From: Candidatus Latescibacterota bacterium
GTDB lineage: Bacteria > Latescibacterota > UBA2968
NCBI GenBank assembly: GCA_022821275.1
Contig: JAJEDY010000061.1
Location: 1 to 64,000 of the forward strand
DNA: 64,000 nt
Direction: 5' to 3'
Shown: piece by piece, positions 2,710 through 17,197 of the stretch
Numbering within the stretch: the stretch's first letter is position 1
Layout of the letters: each line of letters starts with the position of its first letter
The notes under the pieces: generated by a model
Seen by the model: the letters and a program-made list of their open reading frames with translations, nothing else
What the model was told of the DNA's origin: nothing
Database searches by the model: none
Position numbers and translations under genes: made by a program

Positions 2710-4035
2710 CTACTCAAAGTGTCTCCCTTGCTTCGCTGCTTGCCATTGGTCTTCTGTATCGATCTTCGCGCCGGGGTCGCCCTGTTGTTTCATCCAGCAA
2801 TCGAGTTCGGCAGACAGGCGTTTCTTCGCCTCTGCGTGTGCGGGATCATCGGCCAGATTATTCAACTCGCAGGGATCCTCATCCATGCGATACAACTGCT
2901 CGGGGGAACGGCGCATGTATCGATCCACCAAAAACCGCGTATGCTCATTAAACGTCGTATCAAAAACCCACGTCGGCCAGTACTGGTGCCATCGAAACTG
3001 CCCCATCAGATGCTTCTCAATATAGATCGCCTCGGGCGTCAGATTGCGAATATAGTGATACGTACCATCCGTCACCGCGCGGATCGGATAGGGCGGACCC
3101 TCGGGAATATTATTATGCATAAAATACGCGAACGCCCGATGATCCTCTGCCTCGCCCAAAAGCACAGACATAAAACTCGACCCATCGAAATCAATCGCAT
3201 CGGAATCACCGCCCGCAGCCTCAACCAGCGTAGGCGCGACATCCTCATACTGAATAACCGCATCGGTATATCCCGGCTTCACCACGCCGGGCCAGCGCAC
3301 AATAAAACCCGTATGAACACCCGTATTCCAATTCGTCCACTTGCACCCGGGAAACTGCGACCCCTGTTCAGACGTAAAAATCACCAGCGTATTATCCGCC
3401 TGCCCGGTCTCGTCCAGCACCGCCAGAATCTCACCCACCTCCTGATCCAGCACCTCAATCTCCGCCAAATACTTGGCATAATCACTCCGCGTCTCCTCCG
3501 TATCCGCCAGATACGGAGGCAACTTCAACGCATCCAGATCAAAATGCTCGGGATTGCCCAGCGTCCACGGCGCGTGCGGCTCAAAAAGCCCGGCCACAAG
3601 ACAAAAAGGCGCATCCCTATCTTGCGCCACAAACGCGCGAATACCCTCAACGCCAAACTCGGGATCGGGATGTGTGCATCCCCCCTCAATACCCGGCACA
3701 TATTCAAAAGGAAAACTCTTATTGGGACCCACGTGCTTCTTGCCACACAGCCCCACGCGATACCCCAGATACCCCAGAAAATGCGGAAGACTCCGCGTCC
3801 CTGGACGCGCAGCAGAATGATTCCAGCACGACCCATTGCGCGCCGGGTACAACCCCGTATAAAGTGCCGTACGGCACGGATTGCACATCGCCATAGGCAA
3901 ATACGCCCGATTAAAAACCAGACCATCTCGCGCCAACCCGTCGATATTCGGCGTATCCACATTCTGCCCACCGTAAAGCGACAAATCGAGATACGTCGCA
4001 TCATCTGCAATCATAATCAAAATATTCGGTTCCAT
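2710..4035 (-). CDS. Sulfatase (formylglycine type)
   Basis: A 441-residue member of the sulfatase / alkaline-phosphatase superfamily that would hydrolyse a sulfate ester, substrate unknown. The N-terminal strand NILIMIADD (Asp11, Asp12) supplies metal ligands. The catalytic signature is C-N-P-C-R followed by TG, with Cys51 as the residue to be oxidised to formylglycine. There is no signal peptide, so the enzyme should be cytoplasmic. A strong AAAGGAGGGG site precedes the ATG, and the start overlaps the end of the upstream sulfatase-like gene by 19 bases, which implies co-translation. Confidence 0.93.
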   Translation of the reverse strand: MEPNILIMIADDATYLDLSLYGGQNVDTPNIDGLARDGLVFNRAYLPMAMCNPCRTALYTGLYPARNGSCWNHSAARPGTRSLPHFLGYLGYRVGLCGKKHVGPNKSFPFEYVPGIEGGCTHPDPEFGVEGIRAFVAQDRDAPFCLVAGLFEPHAPWTLGNPEHFDLDALKLPPYLADTEETRSDYAKYLAEIEVLDQEVGEILAVLDETGQADNTLVIFTSEQGSQFPGCKWTNWNTGVHTGFIVRWPGVVKPGYTDAVIQYEDVAPTLVEAAGGDSDAIDFDGSSFMSVLLGEAEDHRAFAYFMHNNIPEGPPYPIRAVTDGTYHYIRNLTPEAIYIEKHLMGQFRWHQYWPTWVFDTTFNEHTRFLVDRYMRRSPEQLYRMDEDPCELNNLADDPAHAEAKKRLSAELDCWMKQQGDPGAKIDTEDQWQAAKQGRHFE

Positions 4036-5474
4036 AACCCCTCCTTTTGTAGCCCCAATCGCACCAGCAACTCTGGCGGCGCATCAATAGCGCGCAATTT
4101 CTCAACCATCAAACTCTGCATACGGACCAGCGCATCCGGTTCACTATCGGCGAGATCATTCTCCTGATCGGGATCCGAAGGCATGTGATACAACCGCGTC
4201 TTGTGCTTCTCGGGATGTCGCGCAGGCGTCTGCTTGCTCCGAAGCACATCGGCACCCCAATCAAACTGATTGCGATTCGCAATAATACTCGAATAAGCAT
4301 ACACCGGAGGATTGGCCTCATCCACCCCCTGCAACAGCACGTACTCCCCATCGGTAATATTGCACGTCCCAGAAAACTGACCGTACAAAATCGCATCGCG
4401 CCCGGGCGCATCCCCATCTCGCAGAAACGGAATCAAACTCTGCCCGTGCAAATTCACCCCATCGGGCACCGCCAACCCCATAGCCTCCACCACAGTCGGA
4501 AAATAATCAACCGGCTGCACAAACTGCACGGGATGCGCACCGTGACCAAACTCGGGATGCCAGACAATCATCGGAATCCGCGTAATCTCATTCCAGAGCA
4601 CCCAGTTTTTACCCGTACGCCCGTGATCGCCATTGTGCGTCCCGTGATCCGACGCGAGAATAATCATCGTATCATCCATCAACCCCATATTCTCAACCTG
4701 ATCGAGAAAATGCCCCACCCAGCGATCCACCATCGTCACCTCACCCGCATAAATCGCCTGCACCCGCTTCAACTCCGCCTCCGTCAAATTGCCATCCACC
4801 CAATCGTACGGCGCGACCGGATACTCCATCACATCGTCCTCCGAATCATCGTACAACTTCACATAGTGGCGTGGCGGATCCCATGGCTCGTGCGGATCAA
4901 AAGAATCGATCATCAAAAAAAATTCCCGATCCGCATTGTGCTGAAGCCACCGCGCCGCCCGTGAAAACAACTGCGGCGAAAACCAGTCGCGTTCTTCCTT
5001 GCGGATATATTGCGCATTGCGAAAATGCGGTTGCTCGGGCCTGTTATGCGGTGGATAATCCAGCGTCCGATTCTCAAAAACAATATCCGAATCCGTCACA
5101 TACCGGTCCCGCTCCTGCCCGCGCACAAAATCAAACCCCGAAAACGGACGCCAGTACCCACTGCCCGGATTGCTCGTCCAGTGGTGATACACATCCGTAA
5201 AAAAATAGGACACCTTACCCGCCTCGTGCACCGTGCCACCCAGCGTCACATCATCAGGCTCTATACCACCCCATCCCCGCCACGGAAACTCGTATCGCCC
5301 CGTCGCAATATCCCGGCGACACGGCAACGTGGGATACGAAGCCAAATACGCATTCTCAAAAACCGCTCCCCGCTCGGCAAAACGATCTATATTCGGCGTA
5401 TGAATCCGGGAATTGTCATAACACCCCACGTGATCTCGACGCCAGGTATCCAGCACAATCAGAATAACATTCAT
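4017..5474 (-). CDS. Sulfatase-fold hydrolase with Thr at the nucleophile position
   Basis: A 485-residue sulfatase-superfamily protein that begins VILIVLDTWRRDHVGCY, the DTxRxDH form of the metal site. Where other sulfatases have C/S-x-P-x-R-x4-TG, this one reads T-L-P-C-R-RDIA-TG, with Thr49 in the nucleophile slot. Threonine cannot become formylglycine. Related superfamily members (phosphodiesterases, nucleotide pyrophosphatases) use Thr directly, so this may be a phospho- or phosphonate-ester hydrolase, a Thr-dependent enzyme or a pseudo-sulfatase. The downstream metal motif ASDHGTHNGDHG is intact, which argues for activity. There is no signal peptide. GAGGAG precedes the ATG, and 10 bases separate it from the upstream isomerase gene. 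Confidence 0.88.
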   Translation of the reverse strand: MNVILIVLDTWRRDHVGCYDNSRIHTPNIDRFAERGAVFENAYLASYPTLPCRRDIATGRYEFPWRGWGGIEPDDVTLGGTVHEAGKVSYFFTDVYHHWTSNPGSGYWRPFSGFDFVRGQERDRYVTDSDIVFENRTLDYPPHNRPEQPHFRNAQYIRKEERDWFSPQLFSRAARWLQHNADREFFLMIDSFDPHEPWDPPRHYVKLYDDSEDDVMEYPVAPYDWVDGNLTEAELKRVQAIYAGEVTMVDRWVGHFLDQVENMGLMDDTMIILASDHGTHNGDHGRTGKNWVLWNEITRIPMIVWHPEFGHGAHPVQFVQPVDYFPTVVEAMGLAVPDGVNLHGQSLIPFLRDGDAPGRDAILYGQFSGTCNITDGEYVLLQGVDEANPPVYAYSSIIANRNQFDWGADVLRSKQTPARHPEKHKTRLYHMPSDPDQENDLADSEPDALVRMQSLMVEKLRAIDAPPELLVRLGLQKEGLWNRIF

Positions 5475-5484
5475 AAAAAACTCC

Positions 5485-6177
5485 TCATGTTAAAACCTCT
5501 TCAACGCTCACCCGCAGATCCGCCACAGAACCACCCGCGGCATTGAGCACCACAGGACCATCATAACCATTCGCCTTGAGCGCGCGGACCACATCCACAT
5601 CATCCTTCCCAATCGTCACCAGACCCATGCGTCCCACATACTTATCCACAATCCCCACAGCATTATCAACATCCATCGCATTGAGCCAGACATGCGCACG
5701 CTCGGGCAACTCGGGCATCAAAGCGTCAAAATCCGCTGCACTCTCCAAACACGTATCCACCCCATTACCCACATTCAGCGTCACATCGGGAATATTCTCG
5801 AGCAACGCCTGCACACCGCTCACCAGAGCCTCTCGCGTCTCCTGAGAACGCGCACCACTGAGAAAACTCGCACACCGCAGGCGAAGTGCCCGCGCCAGAT
5901 GAACATCCCACTCAACCTGCCGCAAATTAGAACCTGGATCAAACGCGCCCCTGCTATTCACCCCCGTCAAATCGCGCACATGTAACCCCATCAACGCCAC
6001 ACCTGCATCATCGAAATAATCGCGAATCATCCGCACCGAAGCATCGGGATGAAAAGGCGAACTCGCCGTAAACGCACAATGCAACACCATAGCATCAAAA
6101 CCCGCTGCCTTCGCAATCTTCAAGGCAGCGGGCAACACGGCTTTTGGACACATAACAGGATCAAAACACAAACGCAA
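5485..6177 (-). CDS. Sugar phosphate isomerase/epimerase-like TIM barrel
   Basis: About 230 residues of the AP-endonuclease-2 / xylose-isomerase-like TIM-barrel family. Visible features are an N-terminal LCFDPV strand, GLHVRDL, and a C-terminal YDGPVVLNAAGG strand. At 230 residues it is a little shorter than typical members (about 260-290), and metal ligands cannot be assigned with confidence. The best start is TTG at 6177 because AGGAGG lies six bases before it; the in-frame GTG at 6192 has no such site. It is followed closely by the Thr-type sulfatase, so the two are probably co-transcribed. It likely interconverts a sugar released by the neighbouring enzymes. Confidence 0.75.
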   Translation of the reverse strand: MRLCFDPVMCPKAVLPAALKIAKAAGFDAMVLHCAFTASSPFHPDASVRMIRDYFDDAGVALMGLHVRDLTGVNSRGAFDPGSNLRQVEWDVHLARALRLRCASFLSGARSQETREALVSGVQALLENIPDVTLNVGNGVDTCLESAADFDALMPELPERAHVWLNAMDVDNAVGIVDKYVGRMGLVTIGKDDVDVVRALKANGYDGPVVLNAAGGSVADLRVSVEEVLT

Positions 6178-6217
6178 AATAAGCCTCCTCACTTCTTAGC
6201 GATCAGCTAAAAACCTC

Positions 6218-6250
6218 CTGGATTGCGGCTTTAAGCATGCCGCAATGACA
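6218..6250. repeat. Dispersed palindrome, copy 1
   Basis: CTGGATTGCGGC, a 9-base loop and GCCGCAATGACA form an 8-bp stem (ATTGCGGC/GCCGCAAT) in the spacer between the isomerase and the PhyH gene. Two related copies occur at 53412 and 54775. Confidence 0.75.
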
Positions 6251-6272
6251 TCTTCCGTCTCACTTTACACTT

Positions 6273-7052
6273 CTACATCCCCTCCCAATACGCCCACATA
6301 TCATCCGGATCCTCAAACTTCAAATCATCCCAATTCGTCCACCGAAAACGCGTAATAATCGCCATGCGAATCTCATCGCTACAATTCATACTCGCACTGT
6401 GAACCAAATGACTGTGCCAGATCATGGCGGATCCCGCCGGCCCAGAAATCTCCTCGTAATCCGCATCATCCCAATCGAGAATCTCCAGCGGCCTCGTCGA
6501 ACGCGGCTCCCCCTCATAAATCGGCAAATCGTAAAACGTCTTACCCAGACTCACCCGCGAATGCGTTCTAAAATACTCCGCCATATGTTTATGCGTCCCC
6601 GGCCACACGCAGGTACCCCCGCCCTGGGGCTTCACATCATTGAGATACAGCGTAATCCCCACCGTCCAATTATTCACAACACCGCTGCCAAGCCCGTGAC
6701 CATCCATATGACTGCCTTTGGGACCTTTCCACTCGCCACCCTGTGGAAACCGCAAATTCGCCGACGTAATGGGTGGATGCAAAGGCGCCAGACGCCCCTT
6801 ACCAGCCAACTCTTCAACCATACTGTACAGCGGCGAATCGTAAATCAACGCGTGAAACGCCGCGTGCCCATCCATCCCTTGAGACCCCTCTTTCCCAACC
6901 CACGAAGAAGGATCATTGCGATCCACAGGCAGATGATCCCAGATCACATCTCGCGCGGCCTCCATTTGTTCGGGCGTCACCACATCGCGTTTAATCACAT
7001 AGCCCTGCTCCCGAAACACCGCTTTATCATCAACAGTCAAAAACGCCATCAT
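6273..7052 (-). CDS. PhyH-like Fe(II)/2-oxoglutarate dioxygenase
   Basis: A 259-residue oxygenase of the phytanoyl-CoA dioxygenase family. The facial triad is visible as H115-M-D117 (GSHMDGHG) and distal H218 (HLVHSASMN), with R229 as the likely 2-oxoglutarate anchor. These enzymes couple decarboxylation of 2-oxoglutarate to hydroxylation; the substrate is unknown. Two ATG codons stand in tandem (7052 and 7049), with AAGGAG just upstream. They overlap the TGA of the upstream sulfatase, so translation is coupled. Its pairing with a sulfatase suggests both act on one substrate. Confidence 0.9.
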   Translation of the reverse strand: MMAFLTVDDKAVFREQGYVIKRDVVTPEQMEAARDVIWDHLPVDRNDPSSWVGKEGSQGMDGHAAFHALIYDSPLYSMVEELAGKGRLAPLHPPITSANLRFPQGGEWKGPKGSHMDGHGLGSGVVNNWTVGITLYLNDVKPQGGGTCVWPGTHKHMAEYFRTHSRVSLGKTFYDLPIYEGEPRSTRPLEILDWDDADYEEISGPAGSAMIWHSHLVHSASMNCSDEIRMAIITRFRWTNWDDLKFEDPDDMWAYWEGM

Positions 7053-8503
7053 ACACTCCTTCCATCTGCTATATACCGCTCGACCATCTCCCTGAACTCG
7101 CGCACAATATCCGGTTTCCGATTAAACTGATTATACGACTCAAACGGATCATCTCCCATATGATACAACTGACCCCTTGACCCCGGCACAGGACCTGTGC
7201 CCACACACCCATCCACACCGCGCCCCATATCTCCGGAATTATCGCAATCGACAATCAACTTCCAATCCCCTCGCCGAATCGAAAACACCCCCATGCAGGA
7301 ATGGTGTATCAAATCATCCCGAACAAGCTTATTCTCACCCATCAACACAGGCAAAAAACTCGCACTATCTTCACCCGCATCCTCTGGAAGCGTCTCCCCC
7401 ACAATATCCGCCACAGTCGCCATAAAATCCTGCAATCCAACCAGCGCATCGCAAACCGAATTGGGCGCAACAACACCCGGCCAGCGCGCGATAAACGGCT
7501 CTCTGTGTCCCCCCTCCCAGATAAACCCCTTAAAACCGCGCCAATCACCGCAAGACTTGTGACCATACGTGCGCCCATTACAACCGGGCAACGCACCATT
7601 ATCACTCGTCACAATAATCAGCGTATTATCCGCCAGCCCACAGCGATCCAGCGCATCCATCACCTGCCCCACCATCCAGTCAAACAGCGCGACCATATCC
7701 CCCCGGGGACCCGCCTCACTCGCACCGCGCAAAAACTCCGGCACACATTCGACCGTACACGGTTCATGCGGCGCAGAAGCCGCCAGATAAAGAAAAAAGG
7801 GCGTATCTTCATCCCTTGCCCGCTCCTCAATATACGCCACAGCCTTCTCCGTAAAAGCCGGATCCGCTTCCTTGTGGTCCCAATCCGGAACCATCAACCC
7901 GCGCCGACCACCCGCCATCTCGACCGGCTTTTGCACACTCGGAATACCCACCGTCTGATCCTGATCGATAAAACAATAAGGCGGTTGCGCCGTCGAACAG
8001 CCCGACGTCCCGTAAAACCTGTCAAACCCCAGCTCAATCGGTCCCCCCGCAATCGGCTTTGAAAAATCGATCTTATCTTCCTCCACCGGATCGGGTGATC
8101 CACCCGGCCAGGGCAGGGGCTGATCAAAGTTAAACACCTCGCCATCCTTCACACCCCAACCCAAACCCAAATGCCACTTGCCAAAACACCCCGTGTGATA
8201 TCCACACCTTTTCAACAAAGAAGCCACCGTCAGGCGCTCGGGTTCAATCAACGGCCATTCGTAATTGAACAACACATGGCTCTTCAATTCGGTGCGCCAG
8301 CAATAACGCCCGGTCAAAATCCCATATCGCGTGGGCGTACACACCGCCGAAGGCGAATGCGCATCTGTAAACCGCATCCCCTCGCGCGCCAGCCGATCCA
8401 TATACGGCGTGGGGATCTTCGACTGCGGATTATAACACCCCACATCGCCATAGCCCATATCATCAGCCAGAATATAAACAATATTCGGACGTGTATTTGG
8501 CAT
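7049..8503 (-). CDS. Sulfatase (formylglycine type, arylsulfatase-like)
   Basis: A 484-residue cytosolic sulfatase. NIVYILADDMGYGDVGCY carries the first metal aspartates (Asp14, Asp15). The signature is C55-T-P-T-R followed by LTG. The later motifs TGCFGKWHLG and VTSDNGALPG, typical of arylsulfatase-like members, are present. The start is ATG at 8503, preceded by GAGAGG; a GTG start at 8527 in the same frame lacks a site. The ribosome binding site lies inside the stop region of the cupin gene, so cupin, sulfatase and PhyH appear translationally chained. No signal peptide is visible. Confidence 0.93.
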   Translation of the reverse strand: MPNTRPNIVYILADDMGYGDVGCYNPQSKIPTPYMDRLAREGMRFTDAHSPSAVCTPTRYGILTGRYCWRTELKSHVLFNYEWPLIEPERLTVASLLKRCGYHTGCFGKWHLGLGWGVKDGEVFNFDQPLPWPGGSPDPVEEDKIDFSKPIAGGPIELGFDRFYGTSGCSTAQPPYCFIDQDQTVGIPSVQKPVEMAGGRRGLMVPDWDHKEADPAFTEKAVAYIEERARDEDTPFFLYLAASAPHEPCTVECVPEFLRGASEAGPRGDMVALFDWMVGQVMDALDRCGLADNTLIIVTSDNGALPGCNGRTYGHKSCGDWRGFKGFIWEGGHREPFIARWPGVVAPNSVCDALVGLQDFMATVADIVGETLPEDAGEDSASFLPVLMGENKLVRDDLIHHSCMGVFSIRRGDWKLIVDCDNSGDMGRGVDGCVGTGPVPGSRGQLYHMGDDPFESYNQFNRKPDIVREFREMVERYIADGRSV

Positions 8504-8505
8504 CT

Positions 8506-8916
8506 CTAACCTCTCATATTGATCCACGGTTCATCCCCCGACACATCGACCAGTACCTCACCATCGAATTTAGCGGGAGACAAAATCGCCAGAAAAACCA
8601 GATCCTCATCCCCGGCATTATAAGTCCCATGCACCATATCCATCGGAATATGCGCCGCATCACCCGGACCCAGAATTTGCGAATCCCTATCCACCCACTG
8701 CTCTGCCGTTCCCGCAACCACATAAATAATCTCTTCCATACACGGATGGCGATGAAACGCGTGCGCCTTACCCGGCGGCATCGTCACCCGCACCAGCAAC
8801 AAATGATCCGCCTCGGTCAACCCCTCCCGACTGATCCACTCGTGCGGACCCCACGGCAACTCCTCCACCTGCACATCGGATTTTGTGATAAACCTCAACA
8901 CATCTGACTTTGACAT
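8506..8916 (-). CDS. Cupin-domain protein
   Basis: A 136-residue single-domain cupin. The metal-site pattern is seen as HRHPCMEEIIYV in motif 1 and the His of DMVHGTYN in motif 2. Small cupins like this serve as sugar isomerases, dioxygenases or binding proteins, and the sequence does not decide among them. CAGGAG precedes the ATG. It sits three bases after the stop of one sulfatase and runs into the next, so it belongs to the same transcript and probably handles a product of the desulfation pathway. Confidence 0.85.
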   Translation of the reverse strand: MSKSDVLRFITKSDVQVEELPWGPHEWISREGLTEADHLLLVRVTMPPGKAHAFHRHPCMEEIIYVVAGTAEQWVDRDSQILGPGDAAHIPMDMVHGTYNAGDEDLVFLAILSPAKFDGEVLVDVSGDEPWINMRG

Positions 8917-8919
8917 CGC

Positions 8920-10296
8920 TCACTCCTGCGGCAATTCCTCGGCACTGATATCGATCTCCTCGATCAACCGCGCCAGGTCTGCTTCCACCTCTGCCTGCAC
9001 ACCGGCATACGCTGGATCGCCGTACACACTCGTCATCTCCCAGGGATCCTTCTCCAAATCGAACAAATCGCGCTCACCGGTCCGATGTACTGCAAGCGTA
9101 TAATTTTGCGTACGCACGCCATAGTGCTTCGTCGGCCCATCCCAATACGCATAAAACGCCGACTGCCGCCAATCTTCGGGTGTCTCCCCCTCGCACAGCG
9201 CGCGAAAACTTCTGCCCTGCACCTCTGCATCGGGTTGCAACCCGGCAAAATCGAGATACGTCGCACCAAAATCCACATTCACCACAATATCCTCATTCAC
9301 CGAACCCGGCGCAATCGCCCTCGGATACCGCATCACATAAGGCATCAGAAGCGACTCCTCCAAAATCAAACGCTTATCAAAATACGAATGCTCGCCCAAA
9401 AACATACCCTGATCAGATGTATATACCACAATCGTATTCTCCGTCAACCCCTCCTCATCCAGAAAATCCAGCAACCGCCCCACACCCTCGTCAATCGCCG
9501 TAATACACCGCAAATAATCCTTCACATACTTCTGATAAGCCGCGTGAATCTTCTCCGTCGTATTCATCCCCGTCGTATCCAGCCGTCCGGTGGGCCACTC
9601 TCTTCCCCGGACGCCCTCATCCATCCGCTCTGCCTGCATAAGTATCGTGCGGTGGTGATCCTCCAACGCGCAGGACACCTTGTCAAACGGCTTATACAAA
9701 TTCGACGGCTCGGGCAAATCTCCATCCGTGAACAAATCCGCATGACGAGGCGCGAACTCCCACAACCCATGGGGTGCTTTGTGATGGCACAGCATCAAAA
9801 AAGGCTTATCCGGATCGCGCGCCTTCAACCAGTTGAGCGACAAATCAGTAATAATATCCGTCGCATACCCCTCGTACTGCGTCGGCTCGCCATTGCGCGT
9901 AAACGACGGATCAAAATAAGCCCCCTGCCCCGGCAACACCTCCCAATAATCAAACCCATCCGGCTCAGATCCCAGATGCCACTTACCCGCAATACCCGTT
10001 TGATATCCGGAAGCCTGCAACTGCCGCACGAAATTGGGGTGATCATCTCTCAGCGGTTGATTCAACCGCAACACCCCATTTTTATGGCTATATTGCCCCG
10101 TAATAATACTCGCCCTGCTCGGCGAACACAGCGCATTATTGCAAATACAATTATTAAACCGCATGCCCTCATTGGCAATGCGGTCAATATTCGGTGTATC
10201 CACCACCTCATTCAGCCATCCGTTATAACAACTAATGGCATTCACTGTGTGATCATCAGACATAATGTATAGAATATTCGGACGTGGATCAGACAT
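8920..10296 (-). CDS. Sulfatase (formylglycine type)
   Basis: A 458-residue sulfatase when started at its own ATG (10296), which has GGAGG at good spacing. NILYIMSDDHTVNAISCY gives the first metal residues (Asp14, Asp15). The signature is C57-S-P-S-R followed by ITG. IAGKWHLG and VYTSDQGMFLGEHS complete the active site. There is no signal peptide. The open frame does not begin here: it extends upstream through the whole HepT gene without a stop, so a HepT-sulfatase fusion of 583 residues is also encoded. The strong internal ribosome binding site makes the separate sulfatase the likelier main product. Confidence 0.9.
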   Translation of the reverse strand: MSDPRPNILYIMSDDHTVNAISCYNGWLNEVVDTPNIDRIANEGMRFNNCICNNALCSPSRASIITGQYSHKNGVLRLNQPLRDDHPNFVRQLQASGYQTGIAGKWHLGSEPDGFDYWEVLPGQGAYFDPSFTRNGEPTQYEGYATDIITDLSLNWLKARDPDKPFLMLCHHKAPHGLWEFAPRHADLFTDGDLPEPSNLYKPFDKVSCALEDHHRTILMQAERMDEGVRGREWPTGRLDTTGMNTTEKIHAAYQKYVKDYLRCITAIDEGVGRLLDFLDEEGLTENTIVVYTSDQGMFLGEHSYFDKRLILEESLLMPYVMRYPRAIAPGSVNEDIVVNVDFGATYLDFAGLQPDAEVQGRSFRALCEGETPEDWRQSAFYAYWDGPTKHYGVRTQNYTLAVHRTGERDLFDLEKDPWEMTSVYGDPAYAGVQAEVEADLARLIEEIDISAEELPQE

Positions 10297-10671
10297 TAAA
10301 ATTCCTCCAATGGTTAAGTGAAACACTCCCGATTCATTGCGTATGATTTCCTCAATTTGTAAGACAACGTCGGGCAACTCGACAATAACAATATTCCACA
10401 CAATATCAAAATTAACCCCAAAATAATGATGAATAAGCCTGTCCCTGACGCCCGCCATACTTTTCCAAGGGACATTTGGATATTTAGTGCGGAGTTCTGT
10501 AGATAGATTTTTAGTCGCTTCCCCAATAATTTCCAGATTGCGTATCACGGCATCCTGCGTCCTCGTATCCGTCAAAAATGTTTCATACGTCATGCCAGCC
10601 GTATAGACTTTTATCCGGCGTGCGGCTTCTCGAATATCGCTCAGAAAGTCTATATTTGTTCGATTAGACAT
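10297..10671 (-). CDS. HepT-like HEPN toxin, in frame with the sulfatase
   Basis: A 125-residue HEPN-family protein (DUF86/HepT) beginning MSNRTNIDFL. The RNase signature R-x4-H-x-Y is intact as RDRLIHHY. In the HepT/MntA system the toxin cleaves RNA and is neutralised when MntA adenylylates the Tyr of this motif. The start overlaps the last codons of the MNT gene by 8 bases, as is usual. It is odd in having no stop codon: after IEEIIRNESG the frame runs through the sulfatase ribosome binding site into the sulfatase. The listed end is the last base before the sulfatase ATG, not a real stop. Stop loss may have killed or modified the toxin. Confidence 0.82.
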
Positions 10672-10966
10672 ACACGATACTTTCTTTAATATTCTCAGCA
10701 ACGCGTGGAATCCGAATCCCTTGAATACCAGCATCTGTCAGAACATCTACCCGTTTGCCCAGGATAGCCTCGAGATATTCGCTAAACTCAATGAACCGAA
10801 GACCTATTGGATGTTCAAATTCCACAACAAGGTCAATGTCACTCGATTCAGTGGCCGTCCCTTTCGCATAAGACCCAAACAAACCAATTCTCTTAACCCC
10901 GTACTCAGACGCCAGATACGAGTCGTTTTCCGAGAGAATATCTGCGATTTTTTCTTTTGTCAACAT
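10664..10966 (-). CDS. MntA-like minimal nucleotidyltransferase antitoxin
   Basis: A 100-residue MNT-type nucleotidyltransferase. The active site GS-x10-DxD is perfect: GSYAKG, six more residues, then DID. It partners the HepT-like gene that follows. In the known HepT/MntA system it transfers AMP to the toxin. ATG at 10966 is preceded by GGGGAG; an upstream TTG at 10972 is less likely. The pair is inserted between two sulfatase genes of the same orientation. Confidence 0.88.
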   Translation of the reverse strand: MLTKEKIADILSENDSYLASEYGVKRIGLFGSYAKGTATESSDIDLVVEFEHPIGLRFIEFSEYLEAILGKRVDVLTDAGIQGIRIPRVAENIKESIVYV

Positions 10967-10996
10967 CGTCAATTTCTCCCCTAAATGGTTTCTTTT

Positions 10997-12259
10997 TTAC
11001 CGTTCTGGAACATAATCATCGACAAATTCCGGCATCATATCTAACACCTTCTGCAAGCGTTCATGCGCCTCTTCAGCATCGACATCGCCCTGCCCCAAAA
11101 CAATATCGTACTCTTCCATCCGATCTGCAGGCACATCGTAAAACCGCCCATCGTGGTAAATTTTAAACCGATGCTCCCGCGCAAACTGTCCCGCGTGATC
11201 TTGACCAAAACCAAAACGCGGATTGTAATGACAAAAAATCCAATCCCTCGGATTGCCTCGCTCACCCCGCAACTGAGGCAAAAAACTGCGCCCATCACAC
11301 GGCATCCCCTCTGGAATGGGCGCATCGGCCAAATCCATCAGCGTCGGCAAAAAATCGCTAAAATCCACCAGATCATCCAACACCACACCTTCTGGCGCCA
11401 CACCCTGCCAAAAAGCAATAAAAGGCACATGCGTCCCCGCATCGGGCATCGTACCCTTACCACCCACAATCTCGACACCGCCCTCAAGCTGGGACGTAAT
11501 CGTGCGATGCGTACCATTATCACTCGTAAACATCACCAGCGTATTATCGAGCAAATCGAGCGCCTCGAGCTTCTCTACAATCCGACCCACCAGCTTATCG
11601 GCATACGCCACCATATCGGCAAAATAGCGCGTATCCTGCTCATCCCTGCGATCTCTATCCCGCCATTCCGGGCTATCGGGCGTAGGAACAAAAGGCGCGT
11701 GAACCAGAATCATCGGATAATAGGCAAAAAAAGGCACATTTTGATGCCGCTCAATAAAATCCAGCAAATAATCACAACAAATATCGGGACCATACCGATC
11801 TTCGACATACTCGTCGGGTAACCACTCGCCATTGCATTCAATTTGCGGATGTGCATATCGTCTCTTACCCGCGCGCACACCATCTTCTGGCGGCGGCGTC
11901 ATATTCCACAAACAATGCTCATCAAACCCAAAATGCGCCGGCATCTTATTATCCTCACTCAACTGCCACTTGCCCGCAACACATGTCGCATACCCCGCAT
12001 CCTGTAACAAATTGCCAAACGTCTTTTCTTTTGGATTCAAATAGGCGAACCTGTCGTAATTCCGAAAATTGTACTGCCCCGTCATAATCTCCACGCGAGA
12101 AGGCGTACACAGCGGTGTCGAATAACAATGGGAAAAGCGAATCCCCCGCGATGCCAGATCATCCAACACCGGCGTCTCATACGTCGTACTCCCATAACAA
12201 CTCAAACACTCAAAACCCATGTCATCTGCCATAATCAACACAATATTCGGTCTTGACAT
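10997..12259 (-). CDS. Sulfatase (formylglycine type)
   Basis: A 420-residue sulfatase, short for the family. NIVLIMADDMGFECLSCYG carries the metal aspartates (Asp12, Asp13), and C51-T-P-S-R with MTG is the maturation signature. CVAGKWQLS and MFTSDNGTHR fit the remaining active site. No signal peptide is seen. The ATG at 12259 has TGGAGAAG before it; the longer frame to 12289 adds nothing conserved. A TTGATA-N17-TAAATT promoter lies at 12288-12316. This gene therefore starts a transcript that runs towards the MntA/HepT pair and the next sulfatases. Confidence 0.92.
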   Translation of the reverse strand: MSRPNIVLIMADDMGFECLSCYGSTTYETPVLDDLASRGIRFSHCYSTPLCTPSRVEIMTGQYNFRNYDRFAYLNPKEKTFGNLLQDAGYATCVAGKWQLSEDNKMPAHFGFDEHCLWNMTPPPEDGVRAGKRRYAHPQIECNGEWLPDEYVEDRYGPDICCDYLLDFIERHQNVPFFAYYPMILVHAPFVPTPDSPEWRDRDRRDEQDTRYFADMVAYADKLVGRIVEKLEALDLLDNTLVMFTSDNGTHRTITSQLEGGVEIVGGKGTMPDAGTHVPFIAFWQGVAPEGVVLDDLVDFSDFLPTLMDLADAPIPEGMPCDGRSFLPQLRGERGNPRDWIFCHYNPRFGFGQDHAGQFAREHRFKIYHDGRFYDVPADRMEEYDIVLGQGDVDAEEAHERLQKVLDMMPEFVDDYVPER

Positions 12260-12287
12260 ACGCTTCTCCAGTAAATAAACCTGAGCC

Positions 12288-12316
12288 AATTTAATGCGAC
12301 CACATCTCTATATCAA
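12288..12316 (-). promoter_or_regulatory. Sigma-70-like promoter, minus strand
   Basis: TTGATA (12311-12316), a 17-base spacer and TAAATT (12288-12293) on the minus strand precede the sulfatase starting at 12259. It is back to back with the plus-strand promoter at 12345-12374. Confidence 0.5.
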
Positions 12317-12344
12317 CTGTCTTCTGGCACCACTATGAATCTGG

Positions 12345-12374
12345 TTGACACACCAATGCCACAAATGATACAAT
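12345..12374 (+). promoter_or_regulatory. Sigma-70 promoter for the plus-strand PhyH gene
   Basis: A consensus TTGACA (12345-12350), an 18-base spacer and TACAAT (12369-12374) place transcription start near 12381. This rules out the in-frame ATG at 12335 and supports the start at 12419. Confidence 0.7.
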
Positions 12375-12418
12375 ATAGAAAACAGATCTATGATACAGAA
12401 CAAAGGGAAGGACGAAAA

Positions 12419-13267
12419 ATGAACATCTCGCTCACATCAACAGAACAAAGCGCTGGTGAACTGGCAAAAGACAAATTGGCAAATGCGATAGAGGCAATTC
12501 GACAAGACGGCTATGTCATCATTGAGCAGGTGGTGAATCACGCGATACTCGACGCCCTCAAAACGCGCATGGATGAAGACTCTGCAAAGCTGACTGAGGC
12601 ACAAAAATGGGGTGGCGCAGGTGGCGTCCAGGGTCATTTACAGCAAGGACCCCCACCATTTGACCCATTTCTATCCCCCGACATCCTCGTCAACCCTTAT
12701 GCCGTTCAGATCTCACGAGAAATGCTGGGTGCGGGATTTTACTGCTGCTTTTACAACGGCAACACAAACACGCCGAACAGCACCTTCCAACCCCTTCATG
12801 CCGACGGCGTTCACCTCTGGGGCGAACAGAACCGTCCCCATCCAGCAACCCAGCTCATTATCAACATCTTTCCCCAGGATACATCTGACAAAAACGGATC
12901 GACACAGATCTGGCCAGGTTCACACCTCGACATGCGCCCAGTAACAGACGAAACAGAAGCGGATCGCCGCTCCTTTTCTCCACCCATTCAGGCCACCCTG
13001 CAAAAAGGTGACATCTTGATTCGCGATTCACGCCTCTGGCATCGCGGCGTACCAAATCCCTCTGATCACAACCGCCACATGATCGCAGTTGTGTACAACA
13101 TCGGATGGCTGGTCAGACGGCGAACGCTCTTCTTCGATAAAAACAGTAAAAAAATATTCGAAGCAAGCGGCGTCGATCCCAATGCCCAATTCCTTGCCCC
13201 CCCGTTCGAATACCTGTTTGAAATGGCGTGCAGAAAAATAAAAAATGATCCCATGCGCGGCGTCTAA
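12419..13267 (+). CDS. PhyH-like Fe(II)/2-oxoglutarate dioxygenase
   Basis: A 282-residue oxygenase and the only plus-strand gene of the island. The iron triad is H127-A-D129 (PLHADGVH) with distal H208 (LWHRGVPN), and R219 is the likely 2-oxoglutarate ligand. GGAAGG precedes ATG 12419, which lies just after a strong promoter. The gene runs convergently into the next PhyH gene and their stop codons overlap by four bases. Its separate orientation and promoter mean it can be regulated apart from the sulfatases. The substrate is unknown. Confidence 0.9.
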   Translation: MNISLTSTEQSAGELAKDKLANAIEAIRQDGYVIIEQVVNHAILDALKTRMDEDSAKLTEAQKWGGAGGVQGHLQQGPPPFDPFLSPDILVNPYAVQISREMLGAGFYCCFYNGNTNTPNSTFQPLHADGVHLWGEQNRPHPATQLIINIFPQDTSDKNGSTQIWPGSHLDMRPVTDETEADRRSFSPPIQATLQKGDILIRDSRLWHRGVPNPSDHNRHMIAVVYNIGWLVRRRTLFFDKNSKKIFEASGVDPNAQFLAPPFEYLFEMACRKIKNDPMRGV

Positions 13268-14118
13268 ACCGCTTCGCTCTCGCTCGGCATCACTGCCCAA
13301 TCGGTACGCAGTTCAGCAGCGCATTCGGCCGGTGGTTGCATAAAACGCTTAACCCGGACACTCGCTTTGGCCTGAAACCTGGGTCCAGCCATTTCCCAGG
13401 CGTTGTAGTGAAATTTGCCTTCGGGTTGCATCACGCGGACATTCAACGTACGGCGAGGCTTCTGGGTCTGGTTCATACCGGCACAGTGCAGACAAGCCGC
13501 GTTGACCACCAACAGATCACCGGGATCGCCGATAACCTGGACCCTGTTGCCGTAGTGATTTGGGTTGGAATCCGGCACCCCGGGGTCTTCGTCAGCCTTA
13601 AAGCGATGGGTACCTGGTATCACCGAAGTCGCGCCGTTTTCAGCGGTGTACCCGTCAATCAAAAAAAAGAACCACAAGCCCCTGTGCTTGCCATTCGCGG
13701 TGAGGCCGGGGCGAAAATCGCGATGGATGCCTTCAGACTGCTCTCCGGGGTTGTAGCGTTGGGTATTGGCGACAAGGTCAGAGAAGTGGTAGGTACCCAG
13801 GGCAGGCTCGCAGATCGCGTGAACAGTGTCGTGGTCGAGCAATTCGATCGCCGCATCACCCCATAAGAAACAGGCACGGGCGTTGGGATTCAGGTCGAAT
13901 TTGCGGTTCCCGTACTTATCGCCGATATGCACGTCGGACAGCTTCATCCCGCCACGCCAGGCGGCAATATAGTCATCGGCGGCACGCTGGGCGATATCGC
14001 GCAAAGGATCGAGGTACTCAGGTGCGATCTGGTTCCTTATAATGGTATAGCCATCGCAGTCGAGATTGGCGAGATGCCCCTCCAATTCGCTGTCGCTAAG
14101 GGGATGGACGGGTCGCAT
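13264..14118 (-). CDS. PhyH-like Fe(II)/2-oxoglutarate dioxygenase
   Basis: A 284-residue member of the family with H132-R-D134 (GIHRDFRPG), distal H211 (CLHCAGMN) and an RR pair at 222-223 for 2-oxoglutarate. The PGT-H segment after the core strand is the usual VIPGTHR. AGGAGA before ATG 14118 fixes the start; the longer frame to 14229 overlaps the upstream gene by 95 bases. It lies 16 bases after the beta-helix gene, so the two are probably co-transcribed. Confidence 0.9.
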   Translation of the reverse strand: MRPVHPLSDSELEGHLANLDCDGYTIIRNQIAPEYLDPLRDIAQRAADDYIAAWRGGMKLSDVHIGDKYGNRKFDLNPNARACFLWGDAAIELLDHDTVHAICEPALGTYHFSDLVANTQRYNPGEQSEGIHRDFRPGLTANGKHRGLWFFFLIDGYTAENGATSVIPGTHRFKADEDPGVPDSNPNHYGNRVQVIGDPGDLLVVNAACLHCAGMNQTQKPRRTLNVRVMQPEGKFHYNAWEMAGPRFQAKASVRVKRFMQPPAECAAELRTDWAVMPSESEAV

Positions 14119-14134
14119 GGGCTGGTCTCCTATC

Positions 14135-15418
14135 TCATTCTTGCTGCTTTTGTTGATTTCGCAAAATCTCTTCAAGAAGCGGCAGTCCTTTGAGCCGCGC
14201 TTTCCAGTTTCGAGGCTGTTTTTCGGCAAGACTCATAATACCTTTATTGTATTTGAAACCCTCGCTGGTCACATTCTCAATAATCGGATGCCAACTATCC
14301 CCCGTGCGGTCTCTCACAACCCCGATTGAGGGACCTCTGACCCGTTTGATCTTCCTGTCATTCTCATCAAACCTGAGCGCTTTCAGGTATTCTTCCGGAA
14401 CATTCGCAAGTCCTTTGAGTGCAATGGCCGCGTTTGTCCCAAATATCGCATGGATATTCTTTACCGTAGTCCCATCTGAAAACACACCGGGTTTATAACG
14501 CTCGTCACTCTGATTCCGTTTCTCCACGTAACCAGGTCCCATCGTCACCGCGAAAGCACAGCTCTTCACAGTCACACCGTCGATCTTGACAACGCCATTT
14601 TGAGCTTTATGTGGCCCGAGCAACACAGCAGTACTGCCATTCTCGCAATACAGATTCTTTGCCGTAATATCATGCACCCCGCCATTATGCCCTCCAGCCC
14701 CCGTCTCCAGTCTAAAAGTCACCCCACCACCAATGGCTTCGAGATTCTCAAAATGGATGGTCTCCCCTGCATGCATCTGAACCAATCCATAACCCGGACT
14801 GGAATTCGTACTCCTGAGATTTCTCACCAGACCATCGGTGGGCCTGAAGACACCCCCACTTTCGACATCCTTATCCCTGGACGGCGTAAAGATAAATGCA
14901 GAATAGGTAGTAAAACTATCCTTAACGTCAATATCGGAGAGCATAAAATTTTTGACCTTTCTGCAGTTAATCGTCCGTATGCCCTCCCCCGCCACACTTC
15001 TGCGATCTGAATAATCGACAATAAACTTACCGCCCAGCCCGCGAATGCTGACATTCTCTATAGATTCGGCATTCCTCCCTGTACCCAATCCAAAAACAAT
15101 GGTCTTCGTACCTTTGGGCCAATAGGGTTTGATAACCGTATCTTTCTCGATCAGCAGGTGCACATTGGATCTCAAGTTGATACCCGCAAAACGATAGACC
15201 CCTTTCGGAACGATCAGGCGTCCGCCGCCTTTTGCCGAGACCTCATCTATCGCTTTTTGCAATCGCTCACTCTGATTGCTTTCAGCCCCATCATCCACCA
15301 GTCCGAAATCCGTCCTCAGGTTCATTGTCAACCCATTTGGATCCATGGTCTCCTCGTATGCCGCCTCCACTACCGCGGTCATTACAAACGCAGTCATCAC
15401 CAACAATACGGTCTTCAT
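14135..15418 (-). CDS. Exported right-handed parallel beta-helix protein (pectate-lyase/GH28-like)
   Basis: A 427-residue secreted protein with a clear signal peptide (hydrophobic residues 4-20, likely cleavage near the VEAA region). After an N-terminal DFGLVDDGAESNQSERLQKAI element, typical of pectate-lyase-superfamily or GH28-like helices, come repeated short strands such as VSIRGLGGKF and FMLSDIDVKD. The catalytic residues of a defined family cannot be assigned, so lyase or hydrolase activity is open. It is the only clearly exported enzyme-like protein of the island and may make the first cut in an extracellular or periplasmic glycan. GGGGAG precedes the ATG. Confidence 0.8.
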   Translation of the reverse strand: MKTVLLVMTAFVMTAVVEAAYEETMDPNGLTMNLRTDFGLVDDGAESNQSERLQKAIDEVSAKGGGRLIVPKGVYRFAGINLRSNVHLLIEKDTVIKPYWPKGTKTIVFGLGTGRNAESIENVSIRGLGGKFIVDYSDRRSVAGEGIRTINCRKVKNFMLSDIDVKDSFTTYSAFIFTPSRDKDVESGGVFRPTDGLVRNLRSTNSSPGYGLVQMHAGETIHFENLEAIGGGVTFRLETGAGGHNGGVHDITAKNLYCENGSTAVLLGPHKAQNGVVKIDGVTVKSCAFAVTMGPGYVEKRNQSDERYKPGVFSDGTTVKNIHAIFGTNAAIALKGLANVPEEYLKALRFDENDRKIKRVRGPSIGVVRDRTGDSWHPIIENVTSEGFKYNKGIMSLAEKQPRNWKARLKGLPLLEEILRNQQKQQE

Positions 15419-15430
15419 GGTTTTCTCCCC

Positions 15431-17197
15431 TCATTTACGTGCAACATAAACGTAGTAGGCACCGCAGATGGGCTGATTGCGCTCGTCGTCGAACCAGGTA
15501 TGCAAAAGCGTGGGACCCGGCTCCAGATCCACGGTAAACACAACACCCTGGTCGTCTGGCTCAACGGGCCTGGCATAGAAGCGTCCACCGATCAGCACAC
15601 GCGCTCGGGCAATCGGAAGCGCAATTCCCGCTTCCAGTTCGCCATCGGTCAATTGAACCGCCTGGCAAGCCTCTCTCAGCTTGAGGCCGCTCTCTCTCGG
15701 CCAGCGCTGCAGTTCAAAGGTGTACTTGCCAGCGGCTTCAACCAGCAAGTGCCAGTAACTGTTCTTCCGCGCAGCCGTCCTCACCTGCCGCTGCTGATCC
15801 ACAAAGACATCCCTCCACTCGCAGGCCGATAGCGTCATCGGATTCTCGGCCTCACTGCCGATGGTAATCCGCTGCACTTGATTGGCGACCGGTTCCACTT
15901 CTCGCCACCATGCATCCAGGTGATCCTGCATCTGCCGGACAATGTCAGGGTGCTGATCGGCAACATCGAGATTCTGTTCGGGATCGCTGTCCAGATCATA
16001 CAGTGCCGTTCCTTCAAGCAAGCGCCACCGTTTCCAGAGCACAGCAGCACCCTCGCGTCTTATGAACGAAGGACTATCAGGCGTCGGGTAGTCCAGCTGC
16101 CCAGGCATACGGCTGTAATTCACCGTCAACATGCGATCTTCCGGCACCTGCTCCGCACCCCGCAAAACCGGAGATAGGCTAATCCCATCCAAACGCAATT
16201 CGGCCGGCGGTTCCAGCCCACAAAACTCAATCAAAGTCGGCAAAATGTCCTGCACCTGAGTCAGTCCCTCAATCTCCCGGGGTTCGCCCAGATCACCATT
16301 TGGCCAATGCAAGAAAAACGGTACCCGGTGTCCTCCTTCCCATAGCTCACACTTTTTACCCCGCATCCCGGCATTGTAATAGACAGAACCAAAAGTACTG
16401 CCATTATCAGTCATAAAGATCAAAATTGTATCCCTATCTACGCCATGTTCTTGCAGAAAGCGTCGAAGCGAACCGACCTGAGTATCCAAATTTCGAATCA
16501 TAGCGAGAAAGCGAATGATATTCTCTCGCAAATTTTCGGGAAGTGCAGGCAACTGGTGTTCATCCTCTGCAAATGCCGCCTCAATGGCCTCGCGGTCTTC
16601 GGTTGGCACAAAAAGTGGGGCGTGAGGGGCATTGGTCGGCAGGAAAGTAAAAAAGGGTTCTGAAGCCGCGATTCGTGCTTGCATCCACGCTTTTGCCGCT
16701 TCGAAAAAGACCTCGGTACAGTATCCTTCCTGTCGTACGCGAGTGCCATTGTGACAATATATATCGTCGAAGTAATCGTTCTCCCAATAGTCGGGCACCG
16801 AACTAATGTGAGAGGATGGAAACCAGAGACTTTCCTCAAAACCGCGGTCCTGAGGACGGTACGGATAGTTATCGCCCAGATGCCATTTGCCAAACACACC
16901 CGTTCGGTAACCATTCGACCGGAAAATATCGGCCATAGTCGGCAAATCTGATCGCAGAAGCGAGCGTCCGCTGCTCACGTTTACAGCGCCATTGCGTGCC
17001 GCATCAAGTCCGCTCAGCAATTGGCCGCGAGTAGGCGTACACATGGGAGCGACGTGAAAATCCATCAGCCGAATACTTTCCCCGTGCAAGCTGTCCAGGT
17101 TCGGCGTCCGGGCAACGGGATTGCCATGACAGCCCAGATCGCCATACCCCTGGTCGTCGGTAATGATCAAAATTACATTGGGTTGTGAGGGTTTCAT
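15431..17197 (-). CDS. Sulfatase with C-terminal extension
   Basis: A 588-residue cytosolic sulfatase with NVILIITDDQGYGDLGCHG for the first metal site and C53-T-P-T-R as signature. TGVFGKWHLGDNYPYRPQDRG and FMTDNGSTFG are classic arylsulfatase motifs. It is about 130 residues longer than most neighbours. The extra C-terminal part, from about residue 455, contains strands such as YTFELQRWP and a final ICGAYYVYV, and looks like a beta-sandwich accessory domain that could bind carbohydrate. No signal peptide is visible. The gene follows GH127 and precedes the beta-helix gene on one strand. Confidence 0.92.
   Translation of the reverse strand: MKPSQPNVILIITDDQGYGDLGCHGNPVARTPNLDSLHGESIRLMDFHVAPMCTPTRGQLLSGLDAARNGAVNVSSGRSLLRSDLPTMADIFRSNGYRTGVFGKWHLGDNYPYRPQDRGFEESLWFPSSHISSVPDYWENDYFDDIYCHNGTRVRQEGYCTEVFFEAAKAWMQARIAASEPFFTFLPTNAPHAPLFVPTEDREAIEAAFAEDEHQLPALPENLRENIIRFLAMIRNLDTQVGSLRRFLQEHGVDRDTILIFMTDNGSTFGSVYYNAGMRGKKCELWEGGHRVPFFLHWPNGDLGEPREIEGLTQVQDILPTLIEFCGLEPPAELRLDGISLSPVLRGAEQVPEDRMLTVNYSRMPGQLDYPTPDSPSFIRREGAAVLWKRWRLLEGTALYDLDSDPEQNLDVADQHPDIVRQMQDHLDAWWREVEPVANQVQRITIGSEAENPMTLSACEWRDVFVDQQRQVRTAARKNSYWHLLVEAAGKYTFELQRWPRESGLKLREACQAVQLTDGELEAGIALPIARARVLIGGRFYARPVEPDDQGVVFTVDLEPGPTLLHTWFDDERNQPICGAYYVYVARK

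What the first reader, a model, noticed from the sequence alone, without database searches (positions are those of the whole stretch)
8920..10671. HepT toxin frame runs without a stop into a sulfatase
The HepT-like gene has an intact R-x4-H-x-Y site but no stop codon before the sulfatase ATG 125 codons later. The same frame continues to give a 583-residue HepT-sulfatase fusion, while GGAGG before the internal ATG allows separate sulfatase. Stop loss may tie the toxin to a metabolic enzyme, making cells dependent on the operon, or may be a step in domestication of the toxin.
Basis: seen in the sequence. Interest (0 to 1): 0.6.

Follow-up and report, generated by a model that had tools for sequence, protein, structure and literature searches.

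The report
Toxin gene fused in-frame to sulfatase
In two related uncultured bacteria, a toxin-antitoxin pair sits directly in front of a sulfatase gene and the toxin gene has no stop codon of its own, so any toxin made should carry a sulfatase on its tail while the sulfatase can still be made alone; this is real and inherited, but probably an accident of insertion.

Summary
HepT (R-x4-H-x-Y intact) has no stop and runs in frame through 12 leader codons into a complete sulfatase: 583 residues, window 8920-10671, minus strand. It is not an assembly error: a second species (G005) has the same stop-less junction, with HepT 96% identical. HepT ends about where relatives put their stop; the extra codons are the sulfatase leader, whose GGAGG is read as Gly-Gly. 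Of 11 genus genomes, six run straight from the upstream sulfatase into this one with no module; G007 keeps the antitoxin but lost HepT by a deletion between AATCG repeats; outgroup G008 has a different upstream region; G004 is cut off by a contig end. Between the two fused copies HepT shows purifying selection (10 synonymous, 4 nonsynonymous changes; p = 1.6e-4), which argues against decay. Clean HepT loss in G007 argues against dependence on the operon. One independent parallel exists in the phylum: HepT running into a nitroreductase through its GGAGG. None was found among about 330 listed HepT hits from other groups. Best reading: the junction removed the HepT stop, giving one gene with two products. 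Whether the tether has a function is unknown.

The parts
10664..10966 (-). MntA-like antitoxin (minimal nucleotidyltransferase), 100 aa; its end overlaps the HepT start
   Evidence: PF01909 E 6.4e-17; GS-x10-D-x-D present
10333..10671 (-). HepT toxin domain, 113 codons, no stop codon
   Evidence: PF01934, profile 1-120 of 120; RDRLIHHY at residue 76; relatives end about here
10297..10332 (-). 12-codon linker SGVFHLTIGGIL, mostly the sulfatase leader
   Evidence: Resembles the leader of outgroup G008; predicted coil
10304..10308 (-). Shine-Dalgarno GGAGG of the sulfatase, read as Gly-Gly in the HepT frame
   Evidence: Sequence; conserved in the relatives whose leader is held
8920..10296 (-). 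Sulfatase, 458 aa, own ATG, motif CSPSR; the sulfatase domain begins within a few residues of the start
   Evidence: PF00884 and PF16347; orthologue in all 11 genus genomes
8920..10671 (-). HepT-sulfatase fusion frame, 583 aa
   Evidence: No stop; same in G005
10997..12289 (-). Upstream sulfatase, same direction; the module sits between it and the fused sulfatase
   Evidence: PF00884; directly upstream of the orthologue in species without the module

Best explanation
A mobile MntA-HepT toxin-antitoxin pair lies between two sulfatase genes that point the same way. Its right-hand junction joined the last HepT codons to the sulfatase leader and lost the HepT stop. The leader happens to be open in that frame, so one gene can give two products: sulfatase alone from its own GGAGG-ATG, and, whenever HepT is translated, a HepT-sulfatase fusion. 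Shown: the missing stop, its sharing by two species, the empty sites in relatives, the intact motifs and the purifying selection on HepT. Inferred: HepT still works as an MntA-controlled RNase with a sulfatase on its C-terminus, and the fusion itself is a by-product of insertion rather than something selected.
For: Two species share the identical stop-less junction, while six relatives run straight from one sulfatase to the other. HepT is full length: relatives end within a few residues of ...IEEIIRNE, and the model ends the last HepT helix at residue 113 and makes 114-131 coil (HepT part low confidence). The linker resembles the leader of outgroup G008. HepT changes between the two species: 10 synonymous, 4 nonsynonymous, p = 1.6e-4; dN/dS about 0.10 against 0.07 for the sulfatase. 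A C-terminal FLAG tag did not stop MntA from modifying HepT in Shewanella (PMC7641770). The parallel HepT-nitroreductase case shows the same anatomy.
Against: No expression data. Only two genomes carry the fusion, so a weak advantage of the tether cannot be excluded. No insertion intermediate and no close donor is known (nearest other HepT 63% identical), so loss of the stop after insertion is equally possible. Module carriers do not form a well-supported clade, so gain, loss and recombination cannot be told apart. The HepT fold was modelled from two sequences.
Confidence: 0.72

Rival explanations
1. The tether is selected: fusing HepT to an enzyme of a neighbouring gene couples toxin to enzyme, or makes toxin loss costly.
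For: Found twice independently in the phylum, each time through the GGAGG of the next gene; kept in two species; HepT under purifying selection.
Against: G007 lost HepT by a short deletion and kept sulfatase and leader. Keeping 12 open codons over a dS of about 0.15 is expected without selection. The separate sulfatase start is conserved.
Confidence: 0.12
2. HepT is being tamed or is decaying: the extension inactivates it.
For: HepT was deleted in G007, so it is not indispensable.
Against: Motifs intact in both fused copies and in the antitoxin, and HepT under purifying selection since the fusion.
Confidence: 0.12
3. Assembly or sequencing error at the junction.
For: The window comes from a draft assembly in 101 contigs.
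Against: The same junction is in a separate genome, G005 (JAJEHL010000008.1), with ordinary divergence around it.
Confidence: 0.02

Closest known systems
HepT/MntA toxin-antitoxin (HEPN/MNT; Shewanella SO_3166/SO_3165)
   Same: MntA then HepT side by side; R-x4-H-x-Y and GS-x10-D-x-D present
   Different: HepT has no stop of its own and continues into a sulfatase
HEPN-M (DUF86/PF01934) fusion proteins
   Same: The HEPN survey PMC3710099 lists occasional fusions of this family to MNT, a REase-like domain and methylases
   Different: The partners listed there are nucleic-acid or toxin-antitoxin domains; the words sulfatase and nitroreductase do not occur in that paper's main text
S1-type sulfatases (closest solved: N-acetylglucosamine-6-sulfatase 5g2v)
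   Same: Sulfatase domain with CSPSR; best solved relative E 1.4e-122
   Different: Here a HepT domain stands in front in the same frame

Membership tests
HepT/MntA toxin-antitoxin | PF01934 domain with R-x4-H-x-Y | tested here: met
HepT/MntA toxin-antitoxin | Adjacent MNT with GS-x10-D-x-D | tested here: met
HepT/MntA toxin-antitoxin | HepT as a separate small protein (usual, not strictly required) | tested here: not met
   No stop; frame of 583 aa
HepT/MntA toxin-antitoxin | RNase toxicity blocked by adenylylation of the tyrosine | not testable with these tools
   needs bench work
Sulfatase (PF00884) | Complete domain and the C-x-P-x-R modification motif | tested here: met

The most novel reading that the evidence does not exclude
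A working HepT toxin that exists in the cell only as the N-terminal domain of a metabolic enzyme, an arrangement that arose more than once by insertion of MntA-HepT directly in front of a ribosome-binding site and is kept because it ties toxin to enzyme.
Probability: 0.12. Interest if true: 0.65.

Novelty: new variant of a known kind. Interest (0 to 1): 0.42.

Why it matters
If the frame is used as read, selection on HepT acts on a protein with a 458-residue enzyme on its end, a natural test of how much a HEPN toxin and its adenylylating antitoxin tolerate. The empty sites, the stop-less fusion and the HepT deletion in sister species show the gain and loss of a toxin-antitoxin pair between two working genes. 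The parallel nitroreductase case makes it possible to ask whether such insertions in front of ribosome-binding sites recur.

Tried and rejected
Selection on the linker itself: only one change in 36 bases between the two species, too little to test. Relaxed constraint on the orphan antitoxin in G007: too few changes. Tree of the locus: the species form a poorly resolved radiation, so insertion and loss could not be ordered. RNA structure over the junction: not more stable than shuffles, z 0.98. Promoter scan: 9 sites against 6.3 expected, not informative. Long HepT frames in other phyla: those fetched were extended upstream, with at most 61 residues after HepT and no downstream gene. An alignment of the fusion with lone HepTs and sulfatases placed the HepTs wrongly and was dropped. 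Papers on toxin fusions by stop loss: nothing on point among the ten listed of one search.

Full report
Observation. On the minus strand, window 8920-10734 is one open frame of 604 aa; from the HepT ATG at 10671 it is 583 aa. Pfam finds a complete HepT-like domain and then a complete sulfatase in that frame. HepT carries RDRLIHHY (R-x4-H-x-Y), the MNT upstream carries GS-x10-D-x-D, and the sulfatase carries CSPSR. The sulfatase has its own ATG (10296) behind GGAGG (10304-10308).

Not an artefact.

What the junction is. Other HepTs of the phylum end within a few residues of the point where this one reaches ...IEEIIRNE; the closest outside the genus (63%) ends ...ILERKTEGDNG and a stop. The further 12 codons, SGVFHLTIGGIL, resemble the sulfatase leader of outgroup G008. 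So HepT is complete or nearly so and reads on through the leader, where GGAGG becomes Gly-Gly. The structure model ends the last HepT helix at residue 113, makes 114-131 coil, and gives a confident sulfatase after that; its HepT part is low in confidence because only two sequences cover it.

Relatives. All 11 genus genomes have the sulfatase. Two carry the fusion (G000, G005). G007 carries the antitoxin, but HepT is missing between two AATCG copies, and the remnant of the HepT start now meets a stop before the leader. In six (G001, G002, G003, G006, G009, G010) the upstream sulfatase runs straight into the leader. In the outgroup G008 the upstream region differs. G004's contig begins inside the sulfatase, so its junction is not held. 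Module carriers do not form a well-supported clade.

Selection. Between G000 and G005 HepT has 10 synonymous and 4 nonsynonymous codon changes (p = 1.6e-4 for so few nonsynonymous), dN/dS about 0.10; the sulfatase about 0.07. As both copies lack the stop, their common ancestor most simply lacked it too, so this constraint acted on the fused frame. The linker has one change, too few to test.

Parallel case. In G054, of another family of the phylum, MNT-HepT runs with no stop through CAAGGAGGTCACATG into a nitroreductase, 285 aa in all; Pfam finds both domains and both toxin-antitoxin motifs are present. Sister genomes G050 and G057 have that nitroreductase without HepT directly in front.

How rare. 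About 80 HepT hits in the phylum give these two events. About 330 listed hits elsewhere (33 in 50 mixed genomes, roughly 150 each in the phyla of G068 and G106) gave none; of those, the longest frames were fetched and read, not all.

Reading. A toxin-antitoxin pair lies between two sulfatase genes with its HepT stop lost at the junction, so one gene can give two products. C-terminal FLAG tagging left HepT open to MntA modification in Shewanella (PMC7641770), so a C-terminal tether need not abolish control. The HEPN survey PMC3710099 records occasional fusions of this family, with nucleic-acid or toxin-antitoxin partners. Domestication and dependence on the operon are not supported; selected tethering is possible but not shown.

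Noticed in passing
L147:867-1721 (G054:C45:4666-5520): Independent HepT frame without a stop running through GGAGG into a nitroreductase; two sister genomes have the nitroreductase without HepT in front.
   Followed up: partly
L150 about 2434-2779 (G007:C1): HepT deleted between AATCG repeats, leaving an intact MNT antitoxin without its toxin.
   Followed up: partly
window 4017-17197: Five sulfatases, three PhyH-like dioxygenases and a cupin protein crowd this region, nearly all on the minus strand.
   Followed up: no
L148 (G034:C152:1991-2296 and upstream): MNT and HepT in one open frame, apparently a single-chain antitoxin-toxin.
   Followed up: no
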